From Klebsiella sp. BIGb0138 (lineage in GTDB: Bacteria > Pseudomonadota > Gammaproteobacteria > Enterobacterales > Enterobacteriaceae), in assembly GCF_004342285.1 (NCBI RefSeq), contig NZ_SMCV01000004.1, positions 310,001 to 374,000 on the forward strand: 64,000 bases of DNA, given 5' to 3'. Positions 34,969-55,757 of the stretch are shown here, one piece after another. Position numbers and translations under genes: made by a program. How positions within the stretch are numbered: position 1 is the first letter of the stretch; each line of letters starts with the position of its first letter. The notes under the pieces were generated by a model. The model had not been told where the DNA came from. It made no database searches and saw nothing but the letters and a program-made list of their open reading frames with translations.

Positions 34969-34969
34969 T

Positions 34970-40820: not shown

Positions 40821-41203
40821 TGGGCTTATTCTGGGCGTTACTCAGCGTTGGGCTGGTCAGCGCCGCGCAGCTGCTGCTACGCGGGGCGATGGTTGAACTG
40901 CCGCCGCTGAGCGGGCTGCTGGCGTTTCTCAATCATCTTTTGCATCTGCGCGCCGGGACTTTCGGCCTGGCGCTCGGGCTGAGCGGCTATCTTCTGTCGA
41001 TGGTGTGCTGGTACTTTGCGCTACATCGGCTGCCGCTCGCCAAAGCCTATGCGTTGCTGAGTCTGAGCTACATCCTGGTATGGGCCGCCGCCATCTGGCT
41101 GCCCGGCTGGCATGAACCTTTCCACTGGCGGTCGCTGTCGGGCGTGCTGATGATTGTCGCTGGCGTAATGACGATCTTCTGGCCGGTGAAGCGCGGCGCC
41201 TGA
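40820..41203 (+). CDS. arnF: Ara4N-phosphoundecaprenol flippase subunit ArnF
   Basis: A 127-residue four-helix membrane protein, partner of ArnE. The LPLAKAYALLSLSYILVW segment (about 73-90) is the family core. ATG 40820 overlaps the arnE stop; the open frame further upstream is not coding. It is the last gene of the operon; the stop is one base from the stop of acpT on the other strand. Confidence 0.94.
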   Translation: MGLFWALLSVGLVSAAQLLLRGAMVELPPLSGLLAFLNHLLHLRAGTFGLALGLSGYLLSMVCWYFALHRLPLAKAYALLSLSYILVWAAAIWLPGWHEPFHWRSLSGVLMIVAGVMTIFWPVKRGA

Positions 41204-41204
41204 T

Positions 41205-41774
41205 TCAGCCAATACTCTCCGCCTGCAATACAAACGGCGTGGGCGTACAGACCGCCATGCTCAGACCGTTGCGCTGGATCTGGCTGACCGACAGCGTGGG
41301 ATGCCGCGTGCTGTCGACGCTGGCAATCTGCCAGGCGCTGCCGCCGCGCTGTTTCACCATCGCTTCCTTACGCGTCCAGATGCGCCAGAAGGCGCTGAGC
41401 TGCCGATCCGGAGGCTCCGCTTCCAGCTCCGCATGTTCCCCGAGGCTAAATAACGCATTGGCCAGGCTACGCCAGTTCTGCCGTGGGCGAATGGCTTCGA
41501 TATCGCAGCCCACTTCGCCTTCATCGCTGAGCAGCAGGGCGATATCATCCCCGCTGTGGCTGAGGTTAAACCACAGCGTCGTTTCGCCGGAGAAGCCCGG
41601 CTTTCCTTGCCCGGTGTAGATAATCTCAGGCAGCGGCGATACCGCCTGAGCTAACAGGGCGCGTCCGGCTAACCAGCTTGCGCGACGCGCTCCCTGCGGC
41701 GCCTGCGCAGCGAGCGCTGGCGGCAGGGAACCCGTGCTGAATGTCGAGATTTTTCCCAGATAAAAGCGATACAT
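41205..41774 (-). CDS. acpT: 4'-phosphopantetheinyl transferase AcpT, last gene of the APE operon
   Basis: Transfers the phosphopantetheine arm of CoA to the serine of carrier proteins. It is 189 residues, Sfp-type, with the magnesium motif GCDIE (89-93) and WTRKEAMVK (133-141). The sequence follows E. coli K-12 AcpT closely. In K-12 AcpT has no obvious substrate; here it directly follows apeR (stop TGA, one base, ATG) in an operon with two carrier proteins, ApeE and ApeF, its likely targets. The longer open frame to 41933 is inside apeR. Confidence 0.96.
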   Translation of the reverse strand: MYRFYLGKISTFSTGSLPPALAAQAPQGARRASWLAGRALLAQAVSPLPEIIYTGQGKPGFSGETTLWFNLSHSGDDIALLLSDEGEVGCDIEAIRPRQNWRSLANALFSLGEHAELEAEPPDRQLSAFWRIWTRKEAMVKQRGGSAWQIASVDSTRHPTLSVSQIQRNGLSMAVCTPTPFVLQAESIG

Positions 41775-41775
41775 A

Positions 41776-43005
41776 TCAGGGCCAACGCTTAATGATGATG
41801 GAGGTATTGATCCCGCCGAAGGCGAAGTTATTGCTCTGCAAAAACTCACAGTCGATGCGGCGGGCTTCGCCCATAATGTAATCCAGCTCGCCGCACTGCG
41901 GGTCCGGATGGCGCAGGTTAAGCGTTGGGGCAAACCAGCCTTCGCGCATCATCTGCAGACTCATCCAGGCCTCCAGCGCGCCGCAGGCGCCCAGGGTATG
42001 GCCAAAATAGCTTTTCAGCGAGGAGAGCGGCACCTTGTCGCCGAAAATGGCGGCGCTGGCCTGGCTCTCGGCAATATCGCCGCGATCGGTCGCCGTCCCG
42101 TGCGCCGACACGTAGCCGATATCCTGGGGGCTTAGCCCGGCCATGTTGAGCGATTGCGCCATGCAGATCTGCATGGTTTCCCGCTGCGGCTGGGTGATAT
42201 GCGCGGCGTCGCAGTTGGTGGCGAAGCCGATAATTTCACCGTAAATGGTCGCCCCGCGCGCTTTGGCGTGCTCCAGCTCTTCCAGAATCAGCGTGCCGGC
42301 GCCCTCGCCAATCACCAGGCCGTCACGTTGTTCATCGAACGGCGACGGGGTGGTTTTCGGCTCGTCGTTGCGCTGGCTGGTGGCGAACAGGGTGTCGAAG
42401 ATGGCCGCCTCTGACGGACACAGCTCTTCAGCCCCGCCGGCGACCATTACCGTTTGATAACCGTGGCGAATGGCTTCCCAGGCGTAGCCAATCGCCTGGC
42501 TGCCGGAGGTGCAGGCGCTGGAGGTCGGGATTACCCGGCCGCGCAGGCCGAAGAACAGGCCGGTGTTCACCGCGGTGGTATGCGGCATCATCTGGACGTA
42601 GGTGGTGCCGGTGATGTTATTGGTGTGCTTTTCCGTCAGCATGGTGGCGAATTCGCTGACCGGGCCGGTACTGCCGGTGGAGGAGCCGTAGGCAATCCCG
42701 GTTTCGCCGTTGGTCAGCACCGCATCGCCAATCAGCCCCGCCTGTTCCAGCGCCAGCTCGCTGGCGCGGGTGGACATCAGCGAGACGCGGCCCATGGCGC
42801 GGATACGCTTGCGGGTATAGTGTTCCGGTAGCGCGAAATCGTCGATTGGCGCGCCGAGTAGGGTGTGCAGCCCGTCATAGATCTGCCATTCCGGCATTTT
42901 GCGCACGGCGTTCTCGTAGGCCTGCAGCCTGGCGGATACCGCCTGCCAGCTTTCGCCGAAGGCGGTGACGCCGCCCATGCCGGTAATGACTACGCGCCGG
43001 GTCAT
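41776..43005 (-). CDS. apeR: APE 3-oxoacyl-ACP synthase ApeR (FabF type)
   Basis: A 409-residue ketosynthase of the KAS II type. The catalytic triad is complete: C165 in SSACTSGSQ, H302 in SAHGTATD and H336 in YFGHTLGACG. It should extend the aryl-polyene chain with malonyl units on ApeE/ApeF. It overlaps apeQ by four bases. It is one of two full ketosynthases in the cluster (with ApeO), plus the ApeC chain-length-type partner. Confidence 0.95.
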   Translation of the reverse strand: MTRRVVITGMGGVTAFGESWQAVSARLQAYENAVRKMPEWQIYDGLHTLLGAPIDDFALPEHYTRKRIRAMGRVSLMSTRASELALEQAGLIGDAVLTNGETGIAYGSSTGSTGPVSEFATMLTEKHTNNITGTTYVQMMPHTTAVNTGLFFGLRGRVIPTSSACTSGSQAIGYAWEAIRHGYQTVMVAGGAEELCPSEAAIFDTLFATSQRNDEPKTTPSPFDEQRDGLVIGEGAGTLILEELEHAKARGATIYGEIIGFATNCDAAHITQPQRETMQICMAQSLNMAGLSPQDIGYVSAHGTATDRGDIAESQASAAIFGDKVPLSSLKSYFGHTLGACGALEAWMSLQMMREGWFAPTLNLRHPDPQCGELDYIMGEARRIDCEFLQSNNFAFGGINTSIIIKRWP

Positions 43006-43733
43006 AGCATACCTCCATTGATGGAAATCACCTGACGCGTCACATAGCCCGCAATATCCGACATTAAATAGCTGGCAAGCCCGGCGACTTCCTCTGCCTG
43101 GCCCATGCGTTTCATCGGGATTATTGACATCGCTTCTTTGAGGGCCGCCTCTTCCATGTCGATCATCCCGGTATCAATCAGCCCTGGCGCGATGCAGTTA
43201 ACGGTGATTTTGCGTTTCGCCAGCTCAATGGCCAGCGCTTTGGTCGCGCCGATAATTCCCGCTTTGGCGGCGCTGTAGTTAACCTGCCCGCGGTTGCCCA
43301 TCACCCCGGAAACGGAGGAGAGGGTAATAATCCTTCCGCCCTGACGGGCGCCGATCATCGGCATAATACACGGCTGAATGACGTTATAAAAACTGTCGAG
43401 ATTGGTGTGGATCACCGCATCCCAGTCATTGTCGCTGAGCGCCGGGAAGGCGCCATCGCGGGTAATGCCGGCATTGTTCACCACGCCGTACCACGGCCCA
43501 TGGGCGGCGATGTCCTGCTCCAGCACCTCGCGGCACTGTTCGCGGTCGGCAACATCAAAGCTCAACGTCCGGCCTGCGCCACCGGCGGCGCGGAGGGTAT
43601 TCAGCGTCTCCTGCGCGCCTGCTGCGTCACGATGATAATGGACGCCGACGACAAAGCCATCGGCCGCCAGCTGGCAGGCGATAGCACGCCCGATACCCTT
43701 GCTGGCACCGGTCACTAATACGGAACGACTCAT
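43002..43733 (-). CDS. apeQ: APE 3-oxoacyl-ACP reductase ApeQ (FabG type)
   Basis: A 243-residue short-chain dehydrogenase that reduces the beta-keto group of the growing polyene. It shows the NADPH motif TGASKGIG (8-15), NNAG (86-89) and the catalytic S140-Y153-K157 set (VNYSAAKAG). It overlaps apeP and apeR by four bases each. Confidence 0.95.
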   Translation of the reverse strand: MSRSVLVTGASKGIGRAIACQLAADGFVVGVHYHRDAAGAQETLNTLRAAGGAGRTLSFDVADREQCREVLEQDIAAHGPWYGVVNNAGITRDGAFPALSDNDWDAVIHTNLDSFYNVIQPCIMPMIGARQGGRIITLSSVSGVMGNRGQVNYSAAKAGIIGATKALAIELAKRKITVNCIAPGLIDTGMIDMEEAALKEAMSIIPMKRMGQAEEVAGLASYLMSDIAGYVTRQVISINGGML

Positions 43734-44206
43734 GGTTTCTCTCCCTGATTAAAAAGCGTCGTTAACTCTTCGGGGGTTGGCTGGAAGGTGTTGATACGAC
43801 CCGTTGCCAACGTTTCCTCCCCGGAGCGGAGGGTGCATTCGAAGCTACCGAAACGCTCATCCTGCATTAATAAGCTGACCGCGATGGTCAGCGTTTTCCC
43901 GGCGGGCAGGACGCCTGCGGCGCATACCAGCTCTCTGGCGCCGAGCACCATGCCGAGGGCGATGCTGCTCTGACCCCGGCGGCGGCGATGCCAGCCGGAC
44001 CAGACGCCAATGGTCTGCGCCATCAGCTCCAGCGCAAACCAGCCTGGCAGATCGCCGTTGGCATCAAGAAACGGCGCCAGCACGCCCCCGGCGGCGACCT
44101 TCACCTGACAGATCGCCGTCTCGTCGGTAACGTCCAGTACCTCTTCGAGCAACAGCATGGGGGCGTCGTGTGGCAGATAGTCGCCGGGCGACAGGTAGTG
44201 GCTCAT
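43730..44206 (-). CDS. apeP: APE hotdog dehydratase ApeP
   Basis: A 158-residue FabZ/FabA-like hotdog-fold protein. The opening LPHDAPMLLLEEVL (about 11-24) contains the His of FabZ-type dehydratases, and the LPGWFALELMAQTIGVW helix (about 53-69) is the hotdog helix. It dehydrates 3-hydroxyacyl-ACP to form each double bond, probably together with ApeI. It overlaps its neighbours by four bases. Confidence 0.92.
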   Translation of the reverse strand: MSHYLSPGDYLPHDAPMLLLEEVLDVTDETAICQVKVAAGGVLAPFLDANGDLPGWFALELMAQTIGVWSGWHRRRRGQSSIALGMVLGARELVCAAGVLPAGKTLTIAVSLLMQDERFGSFECTLRSGEETLATGRINTFQPTPEELTTLFNQGEKP

Positions 44207-45372
44207 GAAAGTCTCCCGAGCAGAATGCTGGCGTTATTGCCGCCAAAGGCAAATGAGTTGGACAAAATCACCGGGCGTTCAAGGGGCTGTGTGGCGGTGA
44301 TGATACCGCACGCCGGCAGCGCCGGGTCGCGCGGCGAGAGGCTAAAATCCTGGGCCGGCAGCGGCAAATGGCGCTGCAAAATCAGCATACTGATTGCCGC
44401 TTCGGTAATCCCGGCGGCGCCGAGGGTATGCCCGGTGAGGTGTTTGGTTGAGCTGCACGGCACCTGGTCGCCGAACAGCTGCTGCACGACCTGCGATTCC
44501 ACCCGATCGTTAAGCGGCGTGGCGGTGCCGTGCAGGTTGATGTAGCCCACCGCCCCGGCGGGGATACCGGCGTCATCAAGCGCCTGGGTAATCGCGCGGA
44601 TGGCCCCTTCGCCCTGCGGATGGGGCGCCGAAATATGGTGCGCATCGCTTGATTCGCCGACGCCCAGCAGCGCGATGGGCTGCGCTTCGCGCGTCAGCAG
44701 CATCAGCGCCGCCCCTTCACCGATGGTAATCCCGCAGCGGTCGCGGGCAAAGGGCTGGCAGCGCGTTGCCGAAAGTGACTCCAGGCTATGAAAGCCGTTG
44801 ATCGGCATTCGGCTCAGCGTATCGGCGCCGCCGACAATCGCCACGTCGGCGAGATCGGCTTCAATCAGCCGCCGGCCGCTGATGATGGCCCTGGCGCTGG
44901 AGGAGCAGGCGGTGGAAAGGGTAAACGCCGGGCCGTCCAGCGCCAGCCAGTGGCTCAGAAAACGCGACGGGTCGCCAAGCTCCTGCTGCGGATATTGCCA
45001 GGCGGCGCTCTGTTTGCCGTTGAGCGTTAACGCAACGTGAATATCGCCTTCATCGAGCCCGGAAGTGCTGGTGCCGAGCACCACGGCGACTCTGTCGCGG
45101 CCGTAGCGGGCGATAGCGTCGTCGACCTGGGGCCGGATCTGCGCCAGCGCCGCCAGCAGCAGCTGGTTGTTGCGCGAGCGGTGGGCGGCAAACGCGTCAG
45201 GGATGGCGGGCAGTTCGCCGTCAACGCCGCCGAGTACCGCCGCGGGCTGCCCCTGAAGCCAGCCTGCGCGCGGGCGCATACCGGGGGCGACGCCGCGCGT
45301 CAGATTTGCGGCGATGTCGTCGCAGTTGTCGCCCAGCGCATTGATCATGCCGACAGCGGAAAGGTAGATCAT
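44203..45372 (-). CDS. apeO: APE 3-oxoacyl-ACP synthase ApeO
   Basis: A 389-residue ketosynthase with C156 in LSTACSSSA, H281 in NLHGTATPLND and H315 in LTGHTLGAAG, so catalytically complete. The frame is open to 45450, but ATG 45372 lies just after the apeN stop and gives the normal ketosynthase N-terminus. It is the second chain-extending KS of the pathway; it probably works with ApeC as the heterodimeric KS/chain-length pair (family knowledge; pairing inferred). Confidence 0.94.
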   Translation of the reverse strand: MIYLSAVGMINALGDNCDDIAANLTRGVAPGMRPRAGWLQGQPAAVLGGVDGELPAIPDAFAAHRSRNNQLLLAALAQIRPQVDDAIARYGRDRVAVVLGTSTSGLDEGDIHVALTLNGKQSAAWQYPQQELGDPSRFLSHWLALDGPAFTLSTACSSSARAIISGRRLIEADLADVAIVGGADTLSRMPINGFHSLESLSATRCQPFARDRCGITIGEGAALMLLTREAQPIALLGVGESSDAHHISAPHPQGEGAIRAITQALDDAGIPAGAVGYINLHGTATPLNDRVESQVVQQLFGDQVPCSSTKHLTGHTLGAAGITEAAISMLILQRHLPLPAQDFSLSPRDPALPACGIITATQPLERPVILSNSFAFGGNNASILLGRLS

Positions 45373-45373
45373 C

Positions 45374-45958
45374 TCAGTCGCCCAGATATTGAATGGTGAT
45401 GTGGTATTTAAAGGCCCGTTGCTCAATGCTGACAGGTTCGCGCTTGCCATGCCGGTTCAGATAGGCGATCGCCGTCACCAACTGGCCGCGAGCGTTCCGT
45501 AGCTCGCGGCGGTCGCCAGCGTCGGTCAACGTCCAGCCTTGCGGCAGCTGCGGCTGCCAGGCCGCTATCGGCCAGTGGCTGAGCATCACGTCGGCCAGCA
45601 CCTGGCTTGCCGGCGGCAGCTGCGGGACGACGATCGATTGCTCGGCGCGCAGCCCCTTATCATCATAGGTCACGAGAAACAGCCGGATCCCCACCGAGGA
45701 GAGGCCGGCGAGGGTGATTTTTTGCTCATCGGCATTGAGCATCACCAGCAGCGACTGGCTCTGGCCGTCGAACCGTCCGGTGAGCAGCTGCTGCGCATTC
45801 AGCGGCGGAGTGATGCCCGGCGCCGGTAACGTCACGCGGGTTCCCGGCTCCAGCCAGGCCTGCGGACGCCCTTGCTGAGGCTGAGGCGAGTGGCTGCAGC
45901 CGGCGAGGATGAGGGTGGCGGCCAGCGCGGCGGCGCGCCAGAGTCTGTGCTTAATCAT
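45374..45958 (-). CDS. apeN: APE cluster lipoprotein ApeN (DUF3261 type)
   Basis: A 194-residue predicted lipoprotein. The signal peptide ends in the lipobox LAGC (about 18-21), and position +2 is Ser, consistent with outer-membrane sorting. The mature part is probably beta-rich with no known catalytic motif. Such a lipoprotein accompanies ApeL and ApeM in APE clusters and probably helps place the aryl polyene lipid in the outer membrane. It overlaps apeM by four bases. Confidence 0.88.
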   Translation of the reverse strand: MIKHRLWRAAALAATLILAGCSHSPQPQQGRPQAWLEPGTRVTLPAPGITPPLNAQQLLTGRFDGQSQSLLVMLNADEQKITLAGLSSVGIRLFLVTYDDKGLRAEQSIVVPQLPPASQVLADVMLSHWPIAAWQPQLPQGWTLTDAGDRRELRNARGQLVTAIAYLNRHGKREPVSIEQRAFKYHITIQYLGD

Positions 45959-48279
45959 CGTCTTTTTTTCTCTTTTTTACCGGGCATCGCCAGGGGAGAC
46001 AGCAGGAAGGCGGTGAAAATACCGCTGACCAGCACAATACCAAAACTGCTGATCGCCTGAGTGGCGCTGAATACCAGCATCCCCAGGGTCAGCAGAGTGG
46101 TCAGCATGGCCAGCACGATCGCCAGCAGCGACGTCAGCGGCGTCCCGCGCGGATTACTGAAAAACAGCGTGTAGTTGATGCCGATTCCCAGCACCAGCAC
46201 CAGCGCCAGCAGGGAAAACAGGTTCAGCGGATGGCCGCTCAGGGAGAGCGCCGCCAGCCCGCAGCCTAACGACAGCACCGAAGGCAGCAGGCTGATAAGC
46301 CCTTTGCGCCAGCCGAGACGCAGCATCGCGCCGCAGGCGATGACCGCCAGCGCGATGCCGAGTAGCCCCGTCAGCAGGTGGCGATAGAGCATGAACAGAT
46401 CGTCAAAGGCGCTTTTGCGGTCCACCCATGCCACGCCGCTCTGTTTTTCGCTCAGAGCCCGCAGCGCAGCGCTCTCTTTGACCCCGTCAACCGGGACCAG
46501 CACGCCGCTTTCGCCCGCTTTCAGCGTCAGCCACAGCAGACGCCAGCCTTCGCTGGCCGGGCTGGCAAGCCAGGCATCGACCGTGACCGGCATCGGCTGA
46601 AGATCGGCGTTTATGTTTTTCAGCCCGGCGCTTTGCAGCGCGGCAGCGACCGCCGGCGCGGCTTTGTTTAACAGCGCGAGATCCTGCTGCTGGCGGGTCA
46701 GCGAGTTCAGCGGGAGGGTGCGATACCCGGCGATCGTCCCCGCTTTTTTCGCCTGCTCAAGCGCGGGAATAAACGCTTCCAGCCGTTCCAGGGTTTGCTG
46801 CGGCGTCGCGCCGTAGACCACGAACCATTTCTGATCGACGCTCTGGCCGGTTAAGGCGGAGATCGCCTTTTCCTGAGCCAGAATAGGCTGCGGCAGCGCC
46901 TGCAGCTGCGCGATATCGTCATCGACGCGCAGCGTGGCGATTCCCGCTACTGATACCAGCGCCAGCGCCAGCGGCAGGCCGATGAACAGTTTTTTATTGC
47001 GCCGCCACGCCGCCAGCCAGCGCAGCATCAGCACCAGCGCCGGAACCGGGCGAACCGGTAAACCGCGGGAGAGCAGCGGATGCCAGCAAATCACCGTCAG
47101 GCACGAAGCGCTGAGCCCGGCGGCGGCGAACACCGACATCTGGCGGATGGCCGGGAAGGGGGCGAGCATCATGATGAGATAGGCCACCACCGCCGTCAGC
47201 AGCGCCAGCAGCAGCGCGTTGCGGACTTTGGCGAGGCTTTGCCACGGCGTGGCCTCCTGGCCGTGCACCATGCGTTCGGTCAGATAGTAGATCGTATAGT
47301 CAGCGGAGATACCGATAATGCTCATGCTCATCACCAGCGTCATCAGATGCAGTTCGCCGAACAGCAGCAGCGTGGCGACGGTTCCCGCCAGCGCGCCCGT
47401 ACCGACGGAGATCAGACACAGTATCAACGGACGAAGCGAGCGGAAGGCCGCAACGATGAGCAGAATCACCCCCAGTATCGTGGCCACGCCGAGGGTGGAG
47501 AGATCGCGTTTGGCCTGCTGGCTGGCATAGTCGCTGTAAAATACCGTACCCCGCGACAGCAGCTGCGCCTGCGGGTAGCGTGCTTTTAATTCCCCCTCCA
47601 GCGCCGCCAGGGTGGTGACTAAGCGGTGCGTCTGCTGCATATCGAATGAGGAACCGGCCAGCTCGCCGTGGATCAGATACCAGCTGTTTCCCTGTTTATC
47701 CTGCGCCACCAGCCAGCCGTCTTTGAGCTGCAGATGCTGACCGTTTTTTGCCATCGCCAGCTGCGACCCGCGCATCAGCATCAGCGGATCGTTTTGCAGC
47801 TCCTGGCCGCTGACCCCGGAGAACGCCGAATAGAGCTGGGAGAGGACCCACTGCGCCTGCGCCGCGCCGCCGTTTTGCAGGCGCGCGCGGGTAGCGTCAT
47901 CGATAAGGCCGTTGCGGTGCTGCCAGAAAAACGCTCCCCAGGCCTGCTGGCTGGCGGCATCCATCGGACCTTTCACGTCGGCCAGGACGTGGGATTTTTG
48001 CAGCAGGCTGAGCCATGCGCGCGCCACCTGAGGATCGGCCTGCTGGCCAGGGCTGACCAGCCAGACCAGCTGCCGGTCAAGGCGCTGGACAAAGCCATCG
48101 TTCAGTTCTGGCGGAATGGCTCCGAGCGTCTGTTGCGGTAACATCGCCAGCACGCTGCTGTTGATGCGCGACCGGGGCAGCTGCGTCAGCAGGAGGCCCA
48201 GCATCAGCAGGCAGATCGCTCCCCAGAGCAGCGCGATGCGCCTGCGGTTACGGTGCAGCAAATCGTTGTCGTTCGTCAT
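45955..48279 (-). CDS. apeM: APE MMPL/RND-type exporter ApeM
   Basis: A 774-residue inner-membrane protein with the MMPL layout: an N-terminal membrane helix (about 14-33), a large periplasmic domain, five to six helices (about 255-430) with GISADYTIYYLTE (about 325-337), a second periplasmic domain, and a second helix bundle (about 630-770) with GIGINYTLFF. It is the likely transporter of the aryl polyene lipid. It overlaps apeL by 32 bases, the longest overlap in the operon. Confidence 0.93.
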   Translation of the reverse strand: MTNDNDLLHRNRRRIALLWGAICLLMLGLLLTQLPRSRINSSVLAMLPQQTLGAIPPELNDGFVQRLDRQLVWLVSPGQQADPQVARAWLSLLQKSHVLADVKGPMDAASQQAWGAFFWQHRNGLIDDATRARLQNGGAAQAQWVLSQLYSAFSGVSGQELQNDPLMLMRGSQLAMAKNGQHLQLKDGWLVAQDKQGNSWYLIHGELAGSSFDMQQTHRLVTTLAALEGELKARYPQAQLLSRGTVFYSDYASQQAKRDLSTLGVATILGVILLIVAAFRSLRPLILCLISVGTGALAGTVATLLLFGELHLMTLVMSMSIIGISADYTIYYLTERMVHGQEATPWQSLAKVRNALLLALLTAVVAYLIMMLAPFPAIRQMSVFAAAGLSASCLTVICWHPLLSRGLPVRPVPALVLMLRWLAAWRRNKKLFIGLPLALALVSVAGIATLRVDDDIAQLQALPQPILAQEKAISALTGQSVDQKWFVVYGATPQQTLERLEAFIPALEQAKKAGTIAGYRTLPLNSLTRQQQDLALLNKAAPAVAAALQSAGLKNINADLQPMPVTVDAWLASPASEGWRLLWLTLKAGESGVLVPVDGVKESAALRALSEKQSGVAWVDRKSAFDDLFMLYRHLLTGLLGIALAVIACGAMLRLGWRKGLISLLPSVLSLGCGLAALSLSGHPLNLFSLLALVLVLGIGINYTLFFSNPRGTPLTSLLAIVLAMLTTLLTLGMLVFSATQAISSFGIVLVSGIFTAFLLSPLAMPGKKEKKRR

Positions 48280-48853
48280 CGGTCAGTTGCGCGGGCGTCA
48301 GTTGATGTTGAGAGAGGACGATATCGGTACGATCGCCTTGTTTATCATTGAGTTGAATACTTTCCAGGTAGCTCTGGCCGGCCAGGTCGATGGTGGCGAA
48401 GATTTTATCCAGCGGCGTGGTTTTCGGCGTCAGGCGCAGGGTCCATCGCCCTTCGCCTTTATCGACGAACTCGACGCGAAAGTTCTGCTCCAGCACCTGC
48501 CGGTCGGCCTGGAACAGCGCGCGCAGCAGATGGTTGAACTGGAACATCTGCGGATTGTTGGCGGCGGTGATCGTTTGCGGCGGCTGGCCGCCGATCGCCT
48601 GCACCATCCGTTTATCATCCAGCAGCAGCTGCATCGGGAACGGCGCGGTCTGATCCCACAGCAGCCCCTGGTCGCGGGCGATCAACATCTGGCCCTGGGA
48701 TCGCAGCGGCTGCGGCAGATCCTTAATGGTACGGGTTTGATCGAAGTGGGCGCGGATCGTCGGTTGTTCGCTAAAGCGCTGTTGCAGATCGTCAAGCGTC
48801 AGGGCGCTGACCAGCGGGCTGATCAAGAGCGCCAGCAGGGGCCACCCTCTCAT
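48248..48853 (-). CDS. apeL: APE LolA-like periplasmic carrier ApeL
   Basis: A 201-residue protein with a signal peptide (about 1-17) and a LolA-type beta-sheet domain (LTLDDLQQRFSEQPTIRAHFDQTRTIKDL, cut here, at about 18 onward). It is proposed to carry the lipid product across the periplasm between ApeM and the outer membrane. It overlaps apeK by four bases. Confidence 0.88.
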   Translation of the reverse strand: MRGWPLLALLISPLVSALTLDDLQQRFSEQPTIRAHFDQTRTIKDLPQPLRSQGQMLIARDQGLLWDQTAPFPMQLLLDDKRMVQAIGGQPPQTITAANNPQMFQFNHLLRALFQADRQVLEQNFRVEFVDKGEGRWTLRLTPKTTPLDKIFATIDLAGQSYLESIQLNDKQGDRTDIVLSQHQLTPAQLTDDERQRFAAP

Positions 48854-49272
48854 GGCTTCACCCCCATACGTTCAAACAGGATATCCGGGCAGACGAAGCT
48901 CAACTCGCGGCTTTGCTCCGCCACCGCCACCTGGATGGTGTAGCCGGTGGTGGTGCGTTTTCCGCTGTCGGCGGCGAAAATCTCATAGCCGATGCGCAGC
49001 CGGTTTTCGTACTCTTCTATCCGGGCGCGCACGCGAAAACGCTGTTCAAAAGTCAGCACGTCGCGGTACTTCACCCGGGTATCCACCACCGGCCAGAGAT
49101 AGCCGGATTCCTTCATCTGACGGTAGCCATAGTTGAACTGATTGAGCAGCGCCTCGCGGGCGATCTCAAAGTAGCGAAAGTAGTTGCCGTGCCACACCAC
49201 GCCCATCATATCGACGTCGTGAAACGGTACGGTCAGCTCTACCTCGGCAGCAAAACGGGGATCGTTAAGCAC
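48850..49272 (-). CDS. apeK: APE thioesterase ApeK (4HBT family)
   Basis: A 140-residue hotdog thioesterase. The 4-hydroxybenzoyl-CoA thioesterase motif VDMMGVVWHGNYFRYFE (about 20-36) carries the catalytic Asp. It may release or edit acyl-ACP intermediates. It starts three bases after the apeJ stop. Confidence 0.9.
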   Translation of the reverse strand: MLNDPRFAAEVELTVPFHDVDMMGVVWHGNYFRYFEIAREALLNQFNYGYRQMKESGYLWPVVDTRVKYRDVLTFEQRFRVRARIEEYENRLRIGYEIFAADSGKRTTTGYTIQVAVAEQSRELSFVCPDILFERMGVKP

Positions 49273-49275
49273 CCT

Positions 49276-50967
49276 TTACTCCTTCTCTTTGGCATCCGGC
49301 AGCTGCCAGAAATCGAAAAAATTGAACCAGTCCAGCGGCGACTGCAGCGCGTAGTGTTCAAGACGTTGCGCGTAGCGGTCGACCGCCTCCTGCAACGCCG
49401 CCTGGCGTCCGGCCCGCGGCAAGGTCAGCGGGTCGGCAAAGGGTTCACAATGAATATGCAGCTTGCCCTGCTGGCGCAGAGCAAAAATCAGCTGTACCGG
49501 GCAGCGCAGAATTGACGCCAGAATAAACGGACCCTGCGGGAACGGCGCGGGCTGCCCCATGAACTCGCTCCAGCAGACGCGCCATTCGCCGCCGCGCTGG
49601 GGCGTCACGGCAATACGGTCGCCGACGATGGCTACCCATTCGTTACGGTCCAGCTTCTCTTGCAGCAGGATGGCGGTATCCGGGCCGATATCGGTTACCG
49701 GTATCAGGTTTACCCCGGCCTGCGGGGCCATCTCCGCCATGATCTGTTGAAAACGGCGGGCGTTGTCGCTAAACACCAGCGCGTTAATGATCTGGCTGCC
49801 CTGCAGTTGTGCCAGCGCCCGGCAGGCTTCGACATCGCCGAGATGGGAGGCCAGCAAGAGCTTGCCGCCTGGCGTTGTGTTGCTGAGCGCCTCTTCCGCT
49901 CCCGGCGCGAAAACCACATCGCGGTCGAAGCGCAATTCGCCGCGCCAGCCGGCTATCTTATCGAGCATCGCCTCGCCAAAACGCAGAAAGTGGCGATAGC
50001 TGTTGAGGCGCGGCGGCAGCGGTAGCCGGCGGGCGCTAAGCCGATCGCGCACGCGGGAGAGCCAGTTTTGCGAGGCCCGACGGGCGCGATGCGCCGTCAG
50101 CCAGTAGGCGCCCACCACCGGGTAGAGCAGCCATGAAAACGCGCCGCGTCCCAGCAGACGCCAGACCAGCAGCATCAGGCGCATCCCCCACAGCCCCTTC
50201 AGCTCTTCCTGCTGCGCCCAGTGGGGGGCGGCGCGGCGAAACAGCAGGGCAGGGATACGCGGCAACATGCCGAGGAACAGGCGGGTGTGCATCCGGGAGA
50301 TGCGGATGTTGTCCTTCAGGGCATCAAAATGAGACAGCCCGTCGGCGGGATAGGTGACTCGGGTCGCAACAAAATAGCTGTTATGGCCCTGCCAGTAGAG
50401 GCGCACCATCACTTCGGTATCGAAATCCATCCGCTTCCCGAGCGCCACGCGCTGCGCCAGCTGTAGGGTTGGCGCAATCGGGTACACGCGAAAGCCGCAC
50501 ATGCTGTCTTTGAGCTGGAGCGAGAGCGTTTCAATCCACACCCAGACGTGGGTTATCCAGCGGCCATACAGGCGCGAGCGGGGAATAGAGTCATCGTAAA
50601 TCGGCCGCCCGGAGATCAGCCCTCTCGGATGGGCCTGCGCCAGCGCCAGCAGCTGCGGAATATCTTCGATGGCGTGCTGCCCGTCGGCATCGACCTGCAC
50701 GGCGTGGCTATACCCGGCTTCGGCCGCCGCCTGCAGGCCGCGGATTACCGCCGTGCCTTTACCGGCATTGTTCGCCAGCCGAATCAGCGTCAGATTCGGT
50801 TCCCGCATCGCCAGTTGCTCCAGCACCTGCCGGGTGGCTTCGTCACTGCCGTCGTCCACCACGATACAGGGCAGGTGGAACGGCTGCAGCCGGGCAAGCA
50901 CCTGAGACATCATCGCGCCGTGGTTGTAGCAGGGGATCACCACGCAGGGGGTGAAGGTTAGCGACAT
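49276..50967 (-). CDS. apeJ: ApeJ: glycosyltransferase 2 fused to an LpxL-type acyltransferase
   Basis: A 563-residue fusion. The N-terminal GT2 domain (about 5-230) has VVIPCYNHGAMM, VVDDGSDE and QVDADGQH (the DxD-type metal motif); the C-terminal domain (about 310-555) resembles lauroyl-acyltransferase LpxL/HtrB, with ASHLGDVE as an HxxxxD/E-like site. It may build the lipid-like anchor that carries the polyene. Its start overlaps the apeI end by ten bases. Confidence 0.88.
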   Translation of the reverse strand: MSLTFTPCVVIPCYNHGAMMSQVLARLQPFHLPCIVVDDGSDEATRQVLEQLAMREPNLTLIRLANNAGKGTAVIRGLQAAAEAGYSHAVQVDADGQHAIEDIPQLLALAQAHPRGLISGRPIYDDSIPRSRLYGRWITHVWVWIETLSLQLKDSMCGFRVYPIAPTLQLAQRVALGKRMDFDTEVMVRLYWQGHNSYFVATRVTYPADGLSHFDALKDNIRISRMHTRLFLGMLPRIPALLFRRAAPHWAQQEELKGLWGMRLMLLVWRLLGRGAFSWLLYPVVGAYWLTAHRARRASQNWLSRVRDRLSARRLPLPPRLNSYRHFLRFGEAMLDKIAGWRGELRFDRDVVFAPGAEEALSNTTPGGKLLLASHLGDVEACRALAQLQGSQIINALVFSDNARRFQQIMAEMAPQAGVNLIPVTDIGPDTAILLQEKLDRNEWVAIVGDRIAVTPQRGGEWRVCWSEFMGQPAPFPQGPFILASILRCPVQLIFALRQQGKLHIHCEPFADPLTLPRAGRQAALQEAVDRYAQRLEHYALQSPLDWFNFFDFWQLPDAKEKE

Positions 50968-51308
50968 AATCGGATCTTCCCGCTGCTGGCGGTATGTCGC
51001 GCTTCGCCATCGTGGCGCTGATAGCTGAAGGTGAGGATTTGGCGCGCCTCCTGCCAGTTCAGGGTGAGCGTGACGGTAGCATCCGGCAGCAGCGGCGCCT
51101 GAAATTTGACGTTCTGAATGCTGTGGAACCGCCAGCCTGGCGCCAGCAGCGTGGTGGCATAATGCATCACCCAGTCCAGCTGGGCGACGCCGGGCAGCAG
51201 CGGCTGTACGGCAAAATGGCCGCTGAACCAGAAAAGGTTGGGGTCGAGATGGAGAACCACTTCACTCTGCTGCTGGGCCCGATGACGTTCAATTTCATGG
51301 GGTTTCAT
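50958..51308 (-). CDS. apeI: APE hotdog dehydratase ApeI
   Basis: A 116-residue FabA/FabZ-like hotdog protein with FSGHFAVQPLLPGVAQLDW (about 28-46), containing the catalytic-type His and the FPxxPxxPG-like pattern. It is the second dehydratase of the cluster. The ATG at 51306-51308 has AGGAG seven bases upstream and lies inside the end of apeH, so the two overlap by 14 bases. Confidence 0.88.
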   Translation of the reverse strand: MKPHEIERHRAQQQSEVVLHLDPNLFWFSGHFAVQPLLPGVAQLDWVMHYATTLLAPGWRFHSIQNVKFQAPLLPDATVTLTLNWQEARQILTFSYQRHDGEARHTASSGKIRLCR

Positions 51309-52653
51309 GAAACAGCTCCTGTAATTGCGCATAGACACGCTTATTCATGCTGTTAACCGGAATTTCGTCGATAATCCGCCAGTAGCGAGGGATGGCGACC
51401 GGCTCCAGCGTGGGGCGTAGCGCCTGCCGCCACCTTTGCTCAAGGGCTCTGCTCGCGGAGTGCCACTCCTGACGGGTACTTTCATCCAGCACCAGCAGGA
51501 CGCCGACGCCCTGGCGGCCAGCGTGGCTGACGGGGATAGCCGCCGCCTCGCAAATGCCTTCCAGCTCCAGCAGGCGCCGCTCGATCTCGCTGAGCGAAAC
51601 CCGCTTTTCTTCAATTTTTACCACCCGTCCCTGACGCCCGATCAGGCGAAACTGCCCATCTTCGGTGAATTGCAGGGTATCGTCGAGTAACAGGCCGTCT
51701 CGATCGGCGATCAGCGGCGAAAATACGCGAATTTTCGGGCCTTGCGCAATGAACCTGACGCCGGGGAAAGGCTGCCAGGCGCCGTGCTCCTGTTCGCGGC
51801 AGCGCCAGGCAAGGACGCCGGTTTCGGTACTGCCGTAGATCTCATCCGGCCAGCATTTAAGCCACCCGGCCGCCTGGGTGGCATTCTCCCAGGGCAGCAG
51901 TCCGCCCGCAGAGAAGACGGCCGCTACCGGCGGCGGGATCAGCCGGGGGTCAAGGCGCTTCAGGAAGGCCGGGCTACTGATAAACGCATAGCGGTGCCGG
52001 GGATTCAGCGCGCTGAGCTGCTCGGCATAATGCAGCATGGCCGCGTGCAGCGGCAGGCTGAGCGCCATCGGCAGGATGATGCGAAAGGTCAATCCGTAGA
52101 GATGTTGCGGCACCACCGAGGCGACAATACGGCAGCTTTCCAGCCGGGCGGCAAAACGCGTGGCCAGCAGCGCTGCCTCGCGGTCGAGGCAGGCTAACGA
52201 TTTGCTAATCCGCTTCGGTTGCCCCGTCGAACCCGAGGTGAAAAGCTCAATGCAGGCGTCATCGGCCAGCTCGCGCCAGGCGACGGCCTGCGGCGGAGAG
52301 CGCCGGGCGCTGCTGATGACCCATGCCGGGCCGCTCCAGCCAAGAGGTGTGTCGCTGAGCACGCCGTCGAACAGCGCGCGCTGCTCCTCCAGCAGGGAGA
52401 GTCGGTTATGCCCCGGGATCACCGGCGTTTTATGGGCATGCAGCGTGGCCAGCAGCGCGACCAGAAACAGATAGCTGTCGTCAAAACAGAGCGCCCAGCG
52501 TTGCCCCGGGTGCTGCAGCAGCTGTTCCGCCCAGCGCGCGACGTCATCGCGCAAATGGCCTAATGTCCAGACCCGATCGTCCCGCCAGGCCACCAGGGTG
52601 TCGGCCGGGCGGGGAGCATTCAGCCAGCGGGCCATAGAAAGAGGCAAGGTCAT
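51295..52653 (-). CDS. apeH: APE starter-unit AMP ligase ApeH
   Basis: A 452-residue ANL-family adenylating enzyme. The P-loop ELFTSGSTGQPKR (about 135-147), YGSTETG (about 273-279) and the late GRQGRVVKIEEKRVSLSEIE hinge region (about 338-357) are present. It activates the aromatic starter (4-hydroxybenzoate in studied APE pathways) and loads it on a carrier protein. It overlaps apeG by four bases. Confidence 0.92.
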   Translation of the reverse strand: MTLPLSMARWLNAPRPADTLVAWRDDRVWTLGHLRDDVARWAEQLLQHPGQRWALCFDDSYLFLVALLATLHAHKTPVIPGHNRLSLLEEQRALFDGVLSDTPLGWSGPAWVISSARRSPPQAVAWRELADDACIELFTSGSTGQPKRISKSLACLDREAALLATRFAARLESCRIVASVVPQHLYGLTFRIILPMALSLPLHAAMLHYAEQLSALNPRHRYAFISSPAFLKRLDPRLIPPPVAAVFSAGGLLPWENATQAAGWLKCWPDEIYGSTETGVLAWRCREQEHGAWQPFPGVRFIAQGPKIRVFSPLIADRDGLLLDDTLQFTEDGQFRLIGRQGRVVKIEEKRVSLSEIERRLLELEGICEAAAIPVSHAGRQGVGVLLVLDESTRQEWHSASRALEQRWRQALRPTLEPVAIPRYWRIIDEIPVNSMNKRVYAQLQELFHETP

Positions 52654-53231
52654 GAGGATTCTCGCTTAATCATCCGCCGGCGTACCAGCCACTCTCCGGC
52701 CATCAGCGCGCCGATCAGCAGATAGGCAATCATGCCGTTCCACGTGGTCCAGAGCGCCATATCGCCATACAGCGCCGTACAGAGGGCGATACTGCCATTG
52801 GCGATAAAAAACAGGCTCCAGACCTGCGTGACCCGGCGGGTATAGCGCACGGCGGCGGCGGGAAGGTGAGGCTCCTGTAAGCGAGCCAGGCGTTCCACCA
52901 GCGGCATGGCTGACCACAGCGAACCGCCGAACACGGCGAGCATGACGGCGTTCACCGCTACCGGGTAAAACAGCAGCAGCTGGTGCGTTTTCAGCAGCGC
53001 GCTGGCCACGCACAGGACGATCCCCGCCAGCGCCGCCAGCTGGGTGACGACGCGCAGCGGGCCCGCCTGGCGCCGGGTTTGACGCAGGCGTAAACACAGC
53101 AGCAGCGCCATTAATGGAAGCAGCCAGTGCAGGCTGTTATGCGCGAGGCCCAGCCAGATGACACATGGCCAGGCCAGCAGGAGCAGGCTTGTCAGCAGCG
53201 GTATGCCCTTGCGTGAGAGCCCCCCCGACAT
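52650..53231 (-). CDS. apeG: APE cluster membrane protein ApeG (COG4648 type)
   Basis: A 193-residue inner-membrane protein with about six hydrophobic segments and no catalytic motif I can name. Proteins of this type are conserved in APE clusters; the role is unknown. It lies between apeF and apeH in the compact operon. Confidence 0.8.
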   Translation of the reverse strand: MSGGLSRKGIPLLTSLLLLAWPCVIWLGLAHNSLHWLLPLMALLLCLRLRQTRRQAGPLRVVTQLAALAGIVLCVASALLKTHQLLLFYPVAVNAVMLAVFGGSLWSAMPLVERLARLQEPHLPAAAVRYTRRVTQVWSLFFIANGSIALCTALYGDMALWTTWNGMIAYLLIGALMAGEWLVRRRMIKRESS

Positions 53232-53236
53232 GCGGC

Positions 53237-53488
53237 TCAGCCTTCCCGGGACAGGCGTTCGAGCGCATCAACCACATCCTGCACGGTGCGCACGGCTTTA
53301 AACTCTTCCGCCTTGATCTTCTTGCTGGTTTTCTTTTGCAGATGGACGATCATATCGACAGCATCAATGCTATCGAGCTCAAGGTCTTCATACAGGCGCG
53401 CTTCCGGCTTGATATCCTGCGGGTCGATTTCAAACAGCTTGACCAGAAGTGCCGAGACTTCTGCATAAATATCGGGTGATTGAGTCAT
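53237..53488 (-). CDS. apeF: APE acyl carrier protein ApeF
   Basis: An 83-residue acidic carrier protein. The phosphopantetheine site is S40 in LELDSIDAVD. ATG 53488 has GAGG eight bases upstream; the open frame further upstream is not coding. Together with ApeE it carries the growing polyene, and AcpT from the same operon is the expected activating enzyme. Confidence 0.94.
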   Translation of the reverse strand: MTQSPDIYAEVSALLVKLFEIDPQDIKPEARLYEDLELDSIDAVDMIVHLQKKTSKKIKAEEFKAVRTVQDVVDALERLSREG

Positions 53489-53498
53489 AGGGCTTGCC

Positions 53499-53756
53499 TC
53501 AGGTACGTTGGGCGTGGATGAAAGCGGCCAGGGTGGCAACGGAGAAGAAGTGCTGGCGCATCTCGTCGCTTTCGGCGGAGAGCACCACGCCATACCGGTT
53601 CTTCACCGCCAGCCCCAGCTCCAGGGCGTCAATGGAATCCAGACCCAGGCCATCGCCAAAGAGTGCCGCATCGGAGTCAATGTCGTCAGCCGACAGTTCT
53701 TCGAGATTCAGCGTAGTTATGATCAGATTTTTAATTTCAAGATAGAGCGCTTGCAT
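53499..53756 (-). CDS. apeE: APE acyl carrier protein ApeE
   Basis: An 85-residue carrier protein with S41 in LGLDSIDALE. Two adjacent ATGs exist (53759 and 53756); the second has better spacing from AGGA and is used. It overlaps the end of apeD by 20 bases. Paired, non-identical carriers are typical of APE clusters. Confidence 0.94.
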   Translation of the reverse strand: MQALYLEIKNLIITTLNLEELSADDIDSDAALFGDGLGLDSIDALELGLAVKNRYGVVLSAESDEMRQHFFSVATLAAFIHAQRT

Positions 53757-54540
53757 CATTAATTCCTGAAGTAGGCGTAGTACCTGTTTGTAATTGAAGC
53801 AAAAGATGCCGATTTAACTCTCTTGCCGCCAGCGACGGCTCCTGCGAGCGGGCATCGTAAAATGAGTCGATTTGTACCCGATCGCGTACCTCAATGGTAA
53901 ACAGCGGTTTTGTCGGCGGCGCATCGTACCATCTGCACTGCTTGCCGAGCATATGCTCGGTGCAGCGGATCGTCACAACGCGTAAATCGCTGGCGCAGCG
54001 TACGGCAATATTGGCCGCGCCGCGCTGCAGGGTCATGGTTTCGCCGGGGCGGGTACGCGTCCCTTCGGGGAAAATTAAAATGGTATCGCCCTGCTGTAGC
54101 CGCTGCCGGCTGGCGGGCAGCAGCGAATCCGCCTGATCGTTAATCAAATAATCTGCCGCGCGAATCACGCCGCTGACGAACGGGTTTTTCAGCAACGCGC
54201 TTTTTACCAGACAATCGGTCTCCGGCATGATCGAAGCCAGCATCACGTAGTCGATCAGGCTTGGATGATTGGCCACCACCAGACAACCGCGCTCCTGGCG
54301 CAAAATGTCGCCGCCTGCAATGCGATAATCCAGCACGCCGACGGCTTTCACCACCGTCAGAAAGAGGCGGAAACTGGCCGCAATGCTGCGGCGCGCCAGG
54401 CGACGACGACGGGTTTTATTCCTGACCACCACCAGCAGCAGGTTAAACCAGATGAGGGACAGCAGCAGCCCGCCAAGACCAAACAGGGCGAAACAGACGC
54501 CGGTCATGGCTCCCCGCCAGACCCGGTTCAGACGCTTCAT
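53737..54540 (-). CDS. apeD: APE lysophospholipid-type acyltransferase ApeD
   Basis: A 267-residue PlsC-family acyltransferase. An N-terminal membrane segment (about 15-37) leads to the catalytic NHPSLID (HxxxxD, about 92-98) and FPEGTRT (about 159-165). It probably transfers the completed polyenoyl chain to a glycolipid acceptor. The start ATG 54540 overlaps the apeC stop (ATGA); an earlier ATG at 54552 is possible. Confidence 0.9.
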   Translation of the reverse strand: MKRLNRVWRGAMTGVCFALFGLGGLLLSLIWFNLLLVVVRNKTRRRRLARRSIAASFRLFLTVVKAVGVLDYRIAGGDILRQERGCLVVANHPSLIDYVMLASIMPETDCLVKSALLKNPFVSGVIRAADYLINDQADSLLPASRQRLQQGDTILIFPEGTRTRPGETMTLQRGAANIAVRCASDLRVVTIRCTEHMLGKQCRWYDAPPTKPLFTIEVRDRVQIDSFYDARSQEPSLAARELNRHLLLQLQTGTTPTSGINDASALS

Positions 54541-55259
54541 GCGCGACTCCATTGCCACTGTACGCGTTCGCCGGGGAGGGTGAAGGCGGGGCGGTCCCGC
54601 AAATAGTGTTGTAAAAATAATAAGCTCTGCGGAAGTTCTGTTTCGGCACATGGGCTAGCGCTGTGGCTGGCGCAGCGCCAGGATTCTCCGGCTTCAATCA
54701 CCAGCGCCAGCGCGTAGGGCCAGATGGGCATCGCCGGCGGTAGCTGCGGATGATAAAACTCGGGCAGGTGGCCGTCGAAATCCACCATCAGCACCCGCTG
54801 ATAGCCCGCCTGCAGCAGGCACATGACTTCACATAGCCCCTGCTGGAAGGTATCCCGCCCGGCCGAAAGCGAAGAGGAAACGATCGGCCGTTGGGCGGCA
54901 ATCGTCAGATTCCCCACCGCCGAGTTATGGACGGAAAGGGCGAAGTCGGTCGGGGAGATGGCCTGTTGCGTCGCCAGAGCGTGGAGAATGCGATAATTGC
55001 GTTCCAGTTCGCCATGGCGGCTGGTGTACAGTACGGCATCGATATGATGGCGGCGCAGCATGGCCAGCCCGCACTCGACGGCGAGTTTACTGCCGGAACT
55101 GAGGCGTCTGGCGGTCATCATCGGTAATTCGGTTAGTTTTGCCTGTGGGGATGAGGGATCGATGGCGTACGGATGCCGTGACCATTGCTGCCACTGCGTC
55201 GTTTCGCTCATTCCCGGGGCCCGGCCCTGCCAGTCAACTATGTTTAGTGCAAATTTCAT
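54537..55259 (-). CDS. apeC: APE ketosynthase chain-length-factor-like protein ApeC
   Basis: A 240-residue beta-ketoacyl-synthase N-domain-like protein, shorter than a full ketosynthase and without a catalytic Cys at the usual place (SVHNSAVGNLTIA, about 137-149, replaces the active-site block). Such proteins act as chain-length partners of a real ketosynthase. A TTG at 55262 is also possible, but ATG 55257-55259 is preferred. It is the first gene of the 17-gene ape-acpT operon. I see no apeA- or apeB-like gene upstream. Confidence 0.88.
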   Translation of the reverse strand: MKFALNIVDWQGRAPGMSETTQWQQWSRHPYAIDPSSPQAKLTELPMMTARRLSSGSKLAVECGLAMLRRHHIDAVLYTSRHGELERNYRILHALATQQAISPTDFALSVHNSAVGNLTIAAQRPIVSSSLSAGRDTFQQGLCEVMCLLQAGYQRVLMVDFDGHLPEFYHPQLPPAMPIWPYALALVIEAGESWRCASHSASPCAETELPQSLLFLQHYLRDRPAFTLPGERVQWQWSRA

Positions 55260-55693
55260 CAACGCGTATCCGCGATAAACCGGTGATCTGAGTGCCGTTT
55301 TTTAACGTCACTTTTTATTTTTGTTCTGGCCCGCGTATACAGTATGGCTAACGCCTCAACGAACGGCGCGTTAACGACCTGGATTGTTTAGCGTTCCGTT
55401 TTTTTGCCGACCGGATGTCCGCCCTCAGGATTGGCTTGAGGACATATCGGGCAAGCGTAGTCACCGCATGACAATTTATGGGGCGAGATCCGGGCGTATT
55501 TTCGATATTTTCGCCCGTCAGTGCAATTTATTATGGCAAATATCAGCGTCTGACAGAGATATTCCATCCCGTCGTTAACAGATTGATGGCCCGTCTTCGA
55601 CATTTCCGCCACATATTGTACCGGGCGGCAAATGAATACATAGGATAATGCCGAATCCAGTATCGCAGCAGAATAGTCTCTGACCCTATTCCT
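55260..55693 (-). promoter_or_regulatory. Upstream region of the APE operon
   Basis: About 430 bases without a convincing gene; more AT-rich than the flanks, with several short dyads (for example CTCA and TGAG inside TGTCC-GGACA near 55428-55455). The ape promoter should lie here; I cannot point to a confident -10/-35. A 114-residue open frame across it does not look like protein. Confidence 0.4.
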
Positions 55694-55729
55694 CTTCAGG
55701 GGTAAGCATTGGCGCGCCAACCCCTGAAG
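55694..55729 (-). terminator. Hairpin after the small lipoprotein gene
   Basis: CTTCAGGGG and CCCCTGAAG form a perfect 9-bp stem; the loop contains the self-complementary TTGGCGCGCCAA. It starts 29 bases past the lipoprotein stop. No T-run follows, so termination efficiency is uncertain. Confidence 0.55.
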
Positions 55730-55757
55730 CAACGATGGATTGCTGCGACGGGGGCGA

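What the first reader, a model, noticed from the sequence alone, without database searches (positions are those of the whole stretch)
41205..55259. Complete aryl polyene operon with its own carrier-activating enzyme
Seventeen minus-strand genes, nearly all overlapping or a few bases apart, form apeC through apeR plus acpT. Every step of a type II polyene synthase plus export is present: starter ligase, two carriers, KS/chain-length partner, reductase, two dehydratases, thioesterase, acyltransferases, MMPL exporter, LolA-like protein and lipoprotein. The pathway family is known, but the exact lipid product and its anchor are not established for this organism.
Basis: partly seen in the sequence, partly recalled or inferred. 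Interest (0 to 1): 0.75.

Follow-up and report, generated by a model that had tools for sequence, protein, structure and literature searches.

The report
Aryl polyene operon missing its methyltransferase
This is the known gene set for a yellow antioxidant membrane pigment, with its carrier-activating enzyme attached as in some E. coli, but the gene that methylates the pigment's aromatic head has decayed to a fossil while the other genes stay intact, so the pigment probably differs from the E. coli one.

Summary
The operon is real: 17 open, tightly packed minus-strand genes, apeC to apeR plus acpT, at 41205-55259. E. coli O157:H7 has the same operon with acpT, so "its own carrier-activating enzyme" is not new. 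"Complete" is wrong. The first gene, apeA (55758-56147, lipoprotein), was missed; the second, apeB (head-group methyltransferase), is gone: 55260-55757 holds a decayed relic, and an ApeB search of the genome found no other copy. In the genus sample 12 of 20 genomes have apeC; 4 of the 12 have intact apeB and the other 8 all carry a relic. Of 81 scored loci 29 lack intact apeB; 14 of the 29 keep relics, in four clades. The remaining genes are under purifying selection. The most likely product is an unmethylated (4-hydroxyphenyl) APE lipid. That is unexpected, because the E. coli apeB deletion is reported to make immature acids and not the mature lipid (PMC8253772). The chemistry is inferred, not shown. 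New variant of a known kind.

The parts
   Evidence: 68% and 65% identical to the lipoproteins upstream of apeB in E. coli O157:H7 and Nissle; lipobox LAGC; dN/dS about 0.12 against Raoultella; no Pfam family
55260..55757 (-). decayed relic of apeB, the SAM-dependent head-group methyltransferase; no open apeB frame
   Evidence: two collinear DNA matches to the intact apeB region of K. indica L006: 110 nt at 70% (50.9 bits) and 99 nt at 78% (69.8 bits), the second covering the 3' end and junction with apeC; best of 200 shuffles 28.3 bits; next best place in the window 31.0 bits. Protein-level match weak: 38 aa, 45%, E 1.6
54537..55259 (-). apeC, ketosynthase chain-length factor
   Evidence: PF13723 2.6e-68; PDB 6qsp_B 3.4e-88
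53737..54540 (-). apeD, acyltransferase
   Evidence: PF01553 4.3e-20
53499..53756 (-). apeE, acyl carrier protein
   Evidence: PF00550 5.7e-7; LDSID serine in 80 of 80 aligned loci
53237..53488 (-). apeF, acyl carrier protein
   Evidence: PF00550 6.5e-12; LDSID serine in 80 of 80 aligned loci
52650..53231 (-). apeG, membrane protein
   Evidence: no Pfam match; 77% identical to the same gene in E. coli O157:H7
51295..52653 (-). apeH, acyl-ACP ligase for the aromatic starter
   Evidence: PF00501 6.8e-10; substrate 4-hydroxybenzoate from PMC8253772
50958..51308 (-). apeI, dehydratase
   Evidence: PF22818 ApeI-like 3e-38
49276..50967 (-). apeJ, glycosyltransferase/acyltransferase
   Evidence: PF00535 7e-19
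48850..49272 (-). apeK, thioesterase
   Evidence: PF13279 5.5e-15
48248..48853 (-). apeL, LolA-like protein
   Evidence: PF03548 1.3e-12
45955..48279 (-). apeM, MMPL-family exporter
   Evidence: PF03176 6.1e-7
45374..45958 (-). apeN, DUF3261 lipoprotein
   Evidence: PF11659 6.9e-38
44203..45372 (-). apeO, ketosynthase
   Evidence: ketoacyl-synt families; Cys and both His in 81 of 81 aligned loci
43730..44206 (-). apeP, dehydratase
   Evidence: PF22817 ApeP-like 1.4e-39; PDB 6qsr_B 8.7e-50
43002..43733 (-). apeQ, ketoreductase
   Evidence: TIGR01831 FabG2 2.6e-137
41776..43005 (-). apeR, second ketosynthase
   Evidence: NF006587 2.9e-234; Cys and both His in 79 of 79 aligned loci
41205..41774 (-). 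acpT, 4'-phosphopantetheinyl transferase
   Evidence: NF007676 2.7e-99; true start probably the ATG at 41774, not the longer TTG frame from 41933

Best explanation
A chromosomal APE operon of the E. coli O157:H7 type (apeA, [apeB], apeC to apeR, acpT) in which apeB decayed, most likely in an ancestor shared with Raoultella-like relatives, while selection kept the rest. Proposed working: AcpT arms the two carriers; ApeH loads 4-hydroxybenzoate, made by UbiC, on a carrier; ApeR and ApeO/ApeC extend it with malonyl units; ApeQ and ApeI/ApeP reduce and dehydrate to a conjugated polyene; ApeK, ApeD and ApeJ release it and attach it to a lipid; ApeG/L/M/N and lipoprotein ApeA take it to the outer membrane. 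Because apeB is dead the head most likely stays 4-hydroxyphenyl instead of the methylated head of the E. coli pigment. Shown here: genes, motifs, absence and relic of apeB, purifying selection. Inferred from the E. coli and Xenorhabdus literature: every chemical step and the product.
For: Operon and families; E. coli O157:H7 counterpart with apeA and apeB in front of apeC and acpT behind apeR; apeB relic in the window by DNA and related relics in R. planticola, R. ornithinolytica and R. terrigena; no ApeB match in the own genome at E<=10, the same query finding four intact copies in the genus sample; dN/dS 0.03-0.34 with no internal stops for apeA, all 16 ape genes and acpT against R. planticola and R. 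ornithinolytica; operon-wide dN/dS 0.064-0.155 in the apeB-less pairs compared; ubiC present and open.
Against: In E. coli, delta-apeB gave immature APE carboxylic acids and the main lipid was seen only in wild type and delta-apeR (PMC8253772 section 7). Operon-wide dN/dS of the window's clade (0.130-0.155, 15 pairs) is above apeB-bearing pairs of dS 0.3-0.75 (0.060-0.119), so selection may be somewhat relaxed here; per-gene medians were higher in apeB-less pairs for 16 of 18 genes (pairs not matched for dS, 5 of 8 from this clade). An unrelated methyltransferase elsewhere in the genome cannot be excluded. No product was measured.
Confidence: 0.6

Rival explanations
1. The pathway runs but stalls: without ApeB the strain makes polyene carboxylic acids that are never built into the mature lipid, and the operon has begun to decay.
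For: E. coli delta-apeB phenotype (PMC8253772 section 7); slightly raised dN/dS in the window's clade.
Against: Attachment and export genes apeD, J, L, M, N stay open with dN/dS 0.13-0.20 against R. planticola and R. ornithinolytica; apeB-less Buttiauxella operons have low operon-wide dN/dS, 0.064-0.081.
Confidence: 0.2
2. Another methyltransferase, not similar to ApeB, methylates the head in trans, so the product is the usual one.
For: Genomes hold many methyltransferases; the search used only ApeB similarity.
Against: No ApeB-like protein in the genome at E<=10; no ORF recognised as a replacement methyltransferase upstream of apeC in 19 of the 28 other apeB-less loci that were looked at by eye.
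Confidence: 0.15
3. apeB never stood in this operon and the 498-base gap is ordinary intergenic DNA.
For: The gap has no open apeB frame and its protein-level similarity is weak (E 1.6).
Against: Two collinear DNA matches to intact apeB and its junction with apeC, far above 200 shuffles; relics in 14 of 29 apeB-less loci against 0 of 29 control stretches.
Confidence: 0.02
4. Ordinary complete APE operon; the lack of apeB is an assembly error.
For: All other genes are intact.
Against: Independently sequenced relatives in the genus sample have the same kind of relic: all 7 other apeC-bearing genomes without intact apeB.
Confidence: 0.01

Closest known systems
APE operon of E. coli O157:H7 with linked acpT (L082)
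   Same: Gene order apeC to apeR then acpT, apeA in front, neighbours yhhS, dcrB, yhhQ; AcpT reported to act on the ApeE/F homologues of that strain, as cited in PMC8253772
   Different: O157:H7 has an annotated, open apeB (352 aa) and yhhT; the window has an apeB relic, no yhhT between apeA and yhhS, and an arn operon between acpT and the nik-like operon
APE_Ec cluster of E. coli CFT073 (18 genes, apeA-apeR)
   Same: 17 of the 18 genes have an open counterpart in the window (all but apeB)
   Different: No dedicated PPTase in that cluster (PMC8253772); it has apeB. CFT073 itself was not fetched; the comparison uses the paper's table
APE clusters of Xenorhabdus (14 loci fetched, 13 scored)
   Same: Core and export genes; ApeM 61-63% identical
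   Different: All 13 scored keep intact apeB and apeA; no acpT match in any of the fetched stretches, some of which are cut by contig ends. The characterised X. doucetiae cluster was not among them
APE operons of R. planticola, R. ornithinolytica and R. terrigena
   Same: Same layout with acpT, apeA and an apeB relic
   Different: The R. terrigena relic is shaped differently from that of the window

Membership tests
Aryl polyene (APE) biosynthetic operon | Ketosynthase/chain-length-factor pair ApeO/ApeC and second ketosynthase ApeR | tested here: met
Aryl polyene (APE) biosynthetic operon | Starter ligase ApeH, two carriers, reductase ApeQ, dehydratases ApeI and ApeP | tested here: met
Aryl polyene (APE) biosynthetic operon | Attachment and export genes apeD, G, J, K, L, M, N | tested here: met
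   apeG by similarity to E. coli only
Aryl polyene (APE) biosynthetic operon | Makes a polyene pigment | not testable with these tools
   needs extraction and MS
Complete 18-gene APE_Ec-type cluster | apeA lipoprotein | tested here: met
   55758-56147
Complete 18-gene APE_Ec-type cluster | apeB methyltransferase | tested here: not met
   relic only; so it is not filed as a complete APE_Ec-type cluster
AcpT phosphopantetheinyl transferase | Family score and conserved acidic residues | tested here: met
   NF007676 330.6 bits, cut-off 174; Asp and Glu of GCDIE and Glu of RKEA in 58 of 58 aligned loci; that they bind metal is recalled
AcpT phosphopantetheinyl transferase | Activates ApeE and ApeF | not testable with these tools
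   reported for the O157 proteins as cited in PMC8253772; primary paper not seen

The most novel reading that the evidence does not exclude
Loss of head-group methylation is a repeated and tolerated step in APE evolution: several enterobacterial lineages, the window's among them, make a selected, membrane-attached 4-hydroxyphenyl APE lipid, so the block seen in E. coli delta-apeB is peculiar to that enzyme set and not a rule of the pathway. apeA is lost only after or together with apeB (missing in 17 of 29 apeB-less and 0 of 52 apeB-bearing loci; too few independent events for significance), which would tie ApeA to the handling of the methylated product.
Probability: 0.5. Interest if true: 0.55.

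Novelty: new variant of a known kind. Interest (0 to 1): 0.4.

Why it matters
[quoted passage not shown] If many enterobacteria lost the head-group methyltransferase but keep the rest under selection, the product cannot be read off from the E. coli structure, such operons should not be annotated as complete, and these strains are natural tests of what the head methyl group and ApeA do in lipid attachment.

Tried and rejected
The promoter/terminator scan over 55200-56770 gave no more than chance (2 promoter-like sites, shuffled mean 2.2; 2 terminator-like, mean 1.5). Coupled loss of apeA and apeB: one-sided pattern, but with 6 independent pairs the sign test has median p 0.125, range 0.0625-0.25. 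Relaxed selection after apeB loss: medians higher in 16 of 18 genes, but pairs were not matched for dS and 5 of the 8 apeB-less pairs come from the window's clade; (25 of 29 apeB-less and 34 of 52 apeB-bearing rows entered, pairs of at least 84% identity kept) the window's clade is raised and Buttiauxella is low, so no general effect is claimed. Relic age was not estimated: it differs by 17-18% from R. planticola and R. ornithinolytica while synonymous sites of the flanking apeA and apeC differ by 28-33%, so it is no clean neutral clock and part of it may have another role. The ubiC hit was flagged with a stop; that stop is the end of an open 173-aa frame. Species: not named by the tools; nearest named locus R. 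planticola, 89% over three concatenated proteins. Structure prediction was not used.

Literature: the listings (most of them capped at 12-30 of more papers) showed no title or abstract start on apeB loss in Klebsiella, Raoultella or Enterobacter; the library lacks most subscription journals and all bioRxiv preprints, so this is no proof of absence. Seen of papers: PMC8253772, passages, sections 5, 6 and 7, and part 1 of 2 of the Discussion; PMC9125672, PMC10580877 and PMC8358021, passages only. The X. doucetiae enzymology, the APE lipid structure and the O157 AcpT work were seen only as cited there. That 6qsp and 6qsr are the Xenorhabdus APE structures, and what the active-site motifs do, is recalled.
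Full report
1. What is there. Between 41205 and 55259 on the minus strand lie 17 open genes; with the starts used here (apeC 55259, apeD 54540, apeE 53756, apeF 53488, apeI 51308, apeO 45372, acpT 41774) 11 junctions overlap by 4-32 bases and 5 are 1-10 bases apart. HMM matches give the APE set: ApeC PF13723 2.6e-68, ApeD acyltransferase 4.3e-20, two carriers, ApeH AMP-binding 6.8e-10, ApeI-like 3e-38, ApeJ GT2 7e-19, ApeK 4HBT_2 5.5e-15, ApeL LolA 1.3e-12, ApeM MMPL 6.1e-7, ApeN DUF3261 6.9e-38, ApeO, ApeP-like 1.4e-39, ApeQ FabG2, ApeR, AcpT. ApeG had no Pfam match and is named from its E. coli counterpart. The Cys and two His of both ketosynthases, the Ser, Tyr and Lys of the reductase, the carrier serines and the motif His and Glu of the dehydratases are invariant in the loci that aligned there (79-82, depending on the motif); other positions of the printed motifs vary. 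That these residues are catalytic is recalled. ApeC and ApeP match PDB chains 6qsp_B and 6qsr_B.

2. In E. coli O157:H7 the order is yhhS, yhhT, lipoprotein (apeA), methyltransferase (apeB), apeC to apeR, acpT, nik. The window has apeA at 55758-56147 (68% and 65% identical to two E. coli strains) but nothing like apeB open between apeA and apeC. Those 498 bases match the intact apeB region of K. indica (L006) in two stretches in the right order and strand (110 nt at 70%, 50.9 bits; 99 nt at 78%, 69.8 bits). With a second intact copy (L008) the same two places score 57.2 and 55.4 bits; the next best place in the 64-kb window scores 31.0, and the best of 200 letter shuffles 28.3. At protein level the relic is faint (38 residues, 45%, E 1.6), so the claim rests on DNA. 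ApeB finds nothing in the window's own genome at E<=10, while the same query finds four intact copies in the genus sample.

3. How general. Genus sample: 12 of 20 genomes have ApeC; 4 of the 12 have intact apeB; the other 8, the window's genome included, all show a relic by DNA. Family sample: 99 of 295 genomes have ApeC at E<=0.001; 51 of the 99 have near full-length ApeB (one of these, G021, with an internal stop). Of the 40 whose ApeC is at least 69% identical to the window's, 14 lack it; at 60% it is 14 of 45 and at 75% 6 of 18 (limits chosen after seeing the data). ApeC of lower identity may belong to other APE subtypes with other tailoring genes.

4. Loss, not ancestral absence. The comparison set was the window, 80 named loci (the best 80 of 99 ApeM relatives found) and two E. 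coli loci; two of these 83 were not scored because the contig ends before apeC (L025, L057). Of 81 scored, 29 lack intact apeB (one of them, Pantoea L020, keeps an open piece of the C-terminal part), and a FastTree tree of ApeJ+ApeM+ApeO needs at least six changes. FastTree is the quick method, and changes alone do not tell gain from loss; the relics do. With 23 intact apeB genes as queries, 14 of 29 apeB-less loci show a remnant upstream of apeC against 0 of 29 control stretches. The 14 fall in four clades: window/Raoultella (6 of 6), Enterobacter/Lelliottia (4 of 4), Pluralibacter with Cedecea and relatives (3 of 6), and Pantoea L020 with Kluyvera L017 (1 of 2). No remnant was found in the other 15, among them all 8 of the Buttiauxella clade and all 3 Pseudocitrobacter, so there the absence could be old. 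The ORFs of at least 100 aa in up to 3 kb upstream of apeC were listed for 19 of the 28 other apeB-less loci; by eye, without HMMs, none looked like a replacement methyltransferase.

5. Is the operon still used? Against R. planticola and R. ornithinolytica, which carry related relics, apeA, all 16 ape genes and acpT have dN/dS 0.03-0.34 and no internal stops. Operon-wide dN/dS is 0.130-0.155 in the 15 pairs of the window's clade, above apeB-bearing pairs of dS 0.3-0.75 (0.060-0.119); some closer apeB-bearing pairs are as high or higher (Escherichia 0.102-0.204, Edwardsiella 0.166); the Buttiauxella pairs, without apeB, have 0.064-0.081. So the operon is under clear purifying selection, perhaps a little relaxed in this clade. 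ubiC, the reported source of 4-hydroxybenzoate (PMC8253772), is present and open.

6. Mechanism. From the E. coli and X. doucetiae work as told in PMC8253772: ApeH loads 4-hydroxybenzoate, ApeR initiates and ApeO/ApeC elongates, ApeQ, ApeI and ApeP reduce and dehydrate, ApeD, J and K are proposed to attach and release, ApeG, L, M, N and ApeA to transport; ApeB is the likely methyltransferase of the head, postulated to act after the chain is made. Without ApeB the simplest product is an unmethylated 4-hydroxyphenyl APE lipid. [quoted passage not shown] Either the attachment enzymes of apeB-less lineages accept the unmethylated acid, or these strains stop at acids, or an unrelated enzyme methylates. 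Sequence does not decide; the constraint on apeD, J, L, M and N favours the first.

7. AcpT. The second headline of the finding is right but known: acpT is found in 58 of 81 scored loci, in 58 of 58 directly after apeR, O157:H7 among them. Some of the 23 without a match are cut by contig ends near there. All 29 apeB-less loci have acpT and 29 of 52 apeB-bearing ones do; this follows the phylogeny and was not tested for independence.

8. Verdict. Known pathway, correctly identified; 'complete' refuted. The new element is the fossil methyltransferase and its repeated loss. New variant of a known kind, interest 0.4; without the apeB result it would be about 0.15.

Noticed in passing
33694-41203: An arn operon (arnB, arnC, arnA, arnD, arnT, arnF by NCBIfam; the ORF 40482-40820 in the arnE place was not tested) runs on the plus strand and ends one base before the acpT stop; similar arn genes lie beside acpT in the Raoultella loci and several Enterobacter-group loci. 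In E. coli O157:H7 nik follows acpT directly.
   Followed up: partly
26959-31862 and 31976-33439: A five-gene ABC transporter operon with family 5 binding protein, nikABCDE-like by position, then a LysR regulator divergent from a phenolic acid decarboxylase (PF05870 1.7e-84).
   Followed up: no
51295-52653: apeH, the starter ligase, has the highest dN of the 18 genes against R. planticola, R. ornithinolytica and R. terrigena (0.11-0.18), unlike the other core enzymes; a change of starter or relaxed constraint was not tested.
   Followed up: no
55260-55757: The relic between apeA and apeC differs less between the window and R. planticola or R. ornithinolytica (17-18%) than synonymous sites of the flanking apeA and apeC (28-33%); it may hold a regulatory element.
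   Followed up: no
E. coli complete genomes: An apeM-like DNA match is found in 808 of 5426 complete E. coli genomes, all 815 places chromosomal; in Nissle (L083) the cluster sits elsewhere, without adjacent acpT and among broken genes.
   Followed up: no
L020 (Pantoea ananatis LMG 2665): apeB is cut down to an open piece of its C-terminal part (145 codons) between apeA and apeC, a younger-looking stage of the same loss.
   Followed up: no
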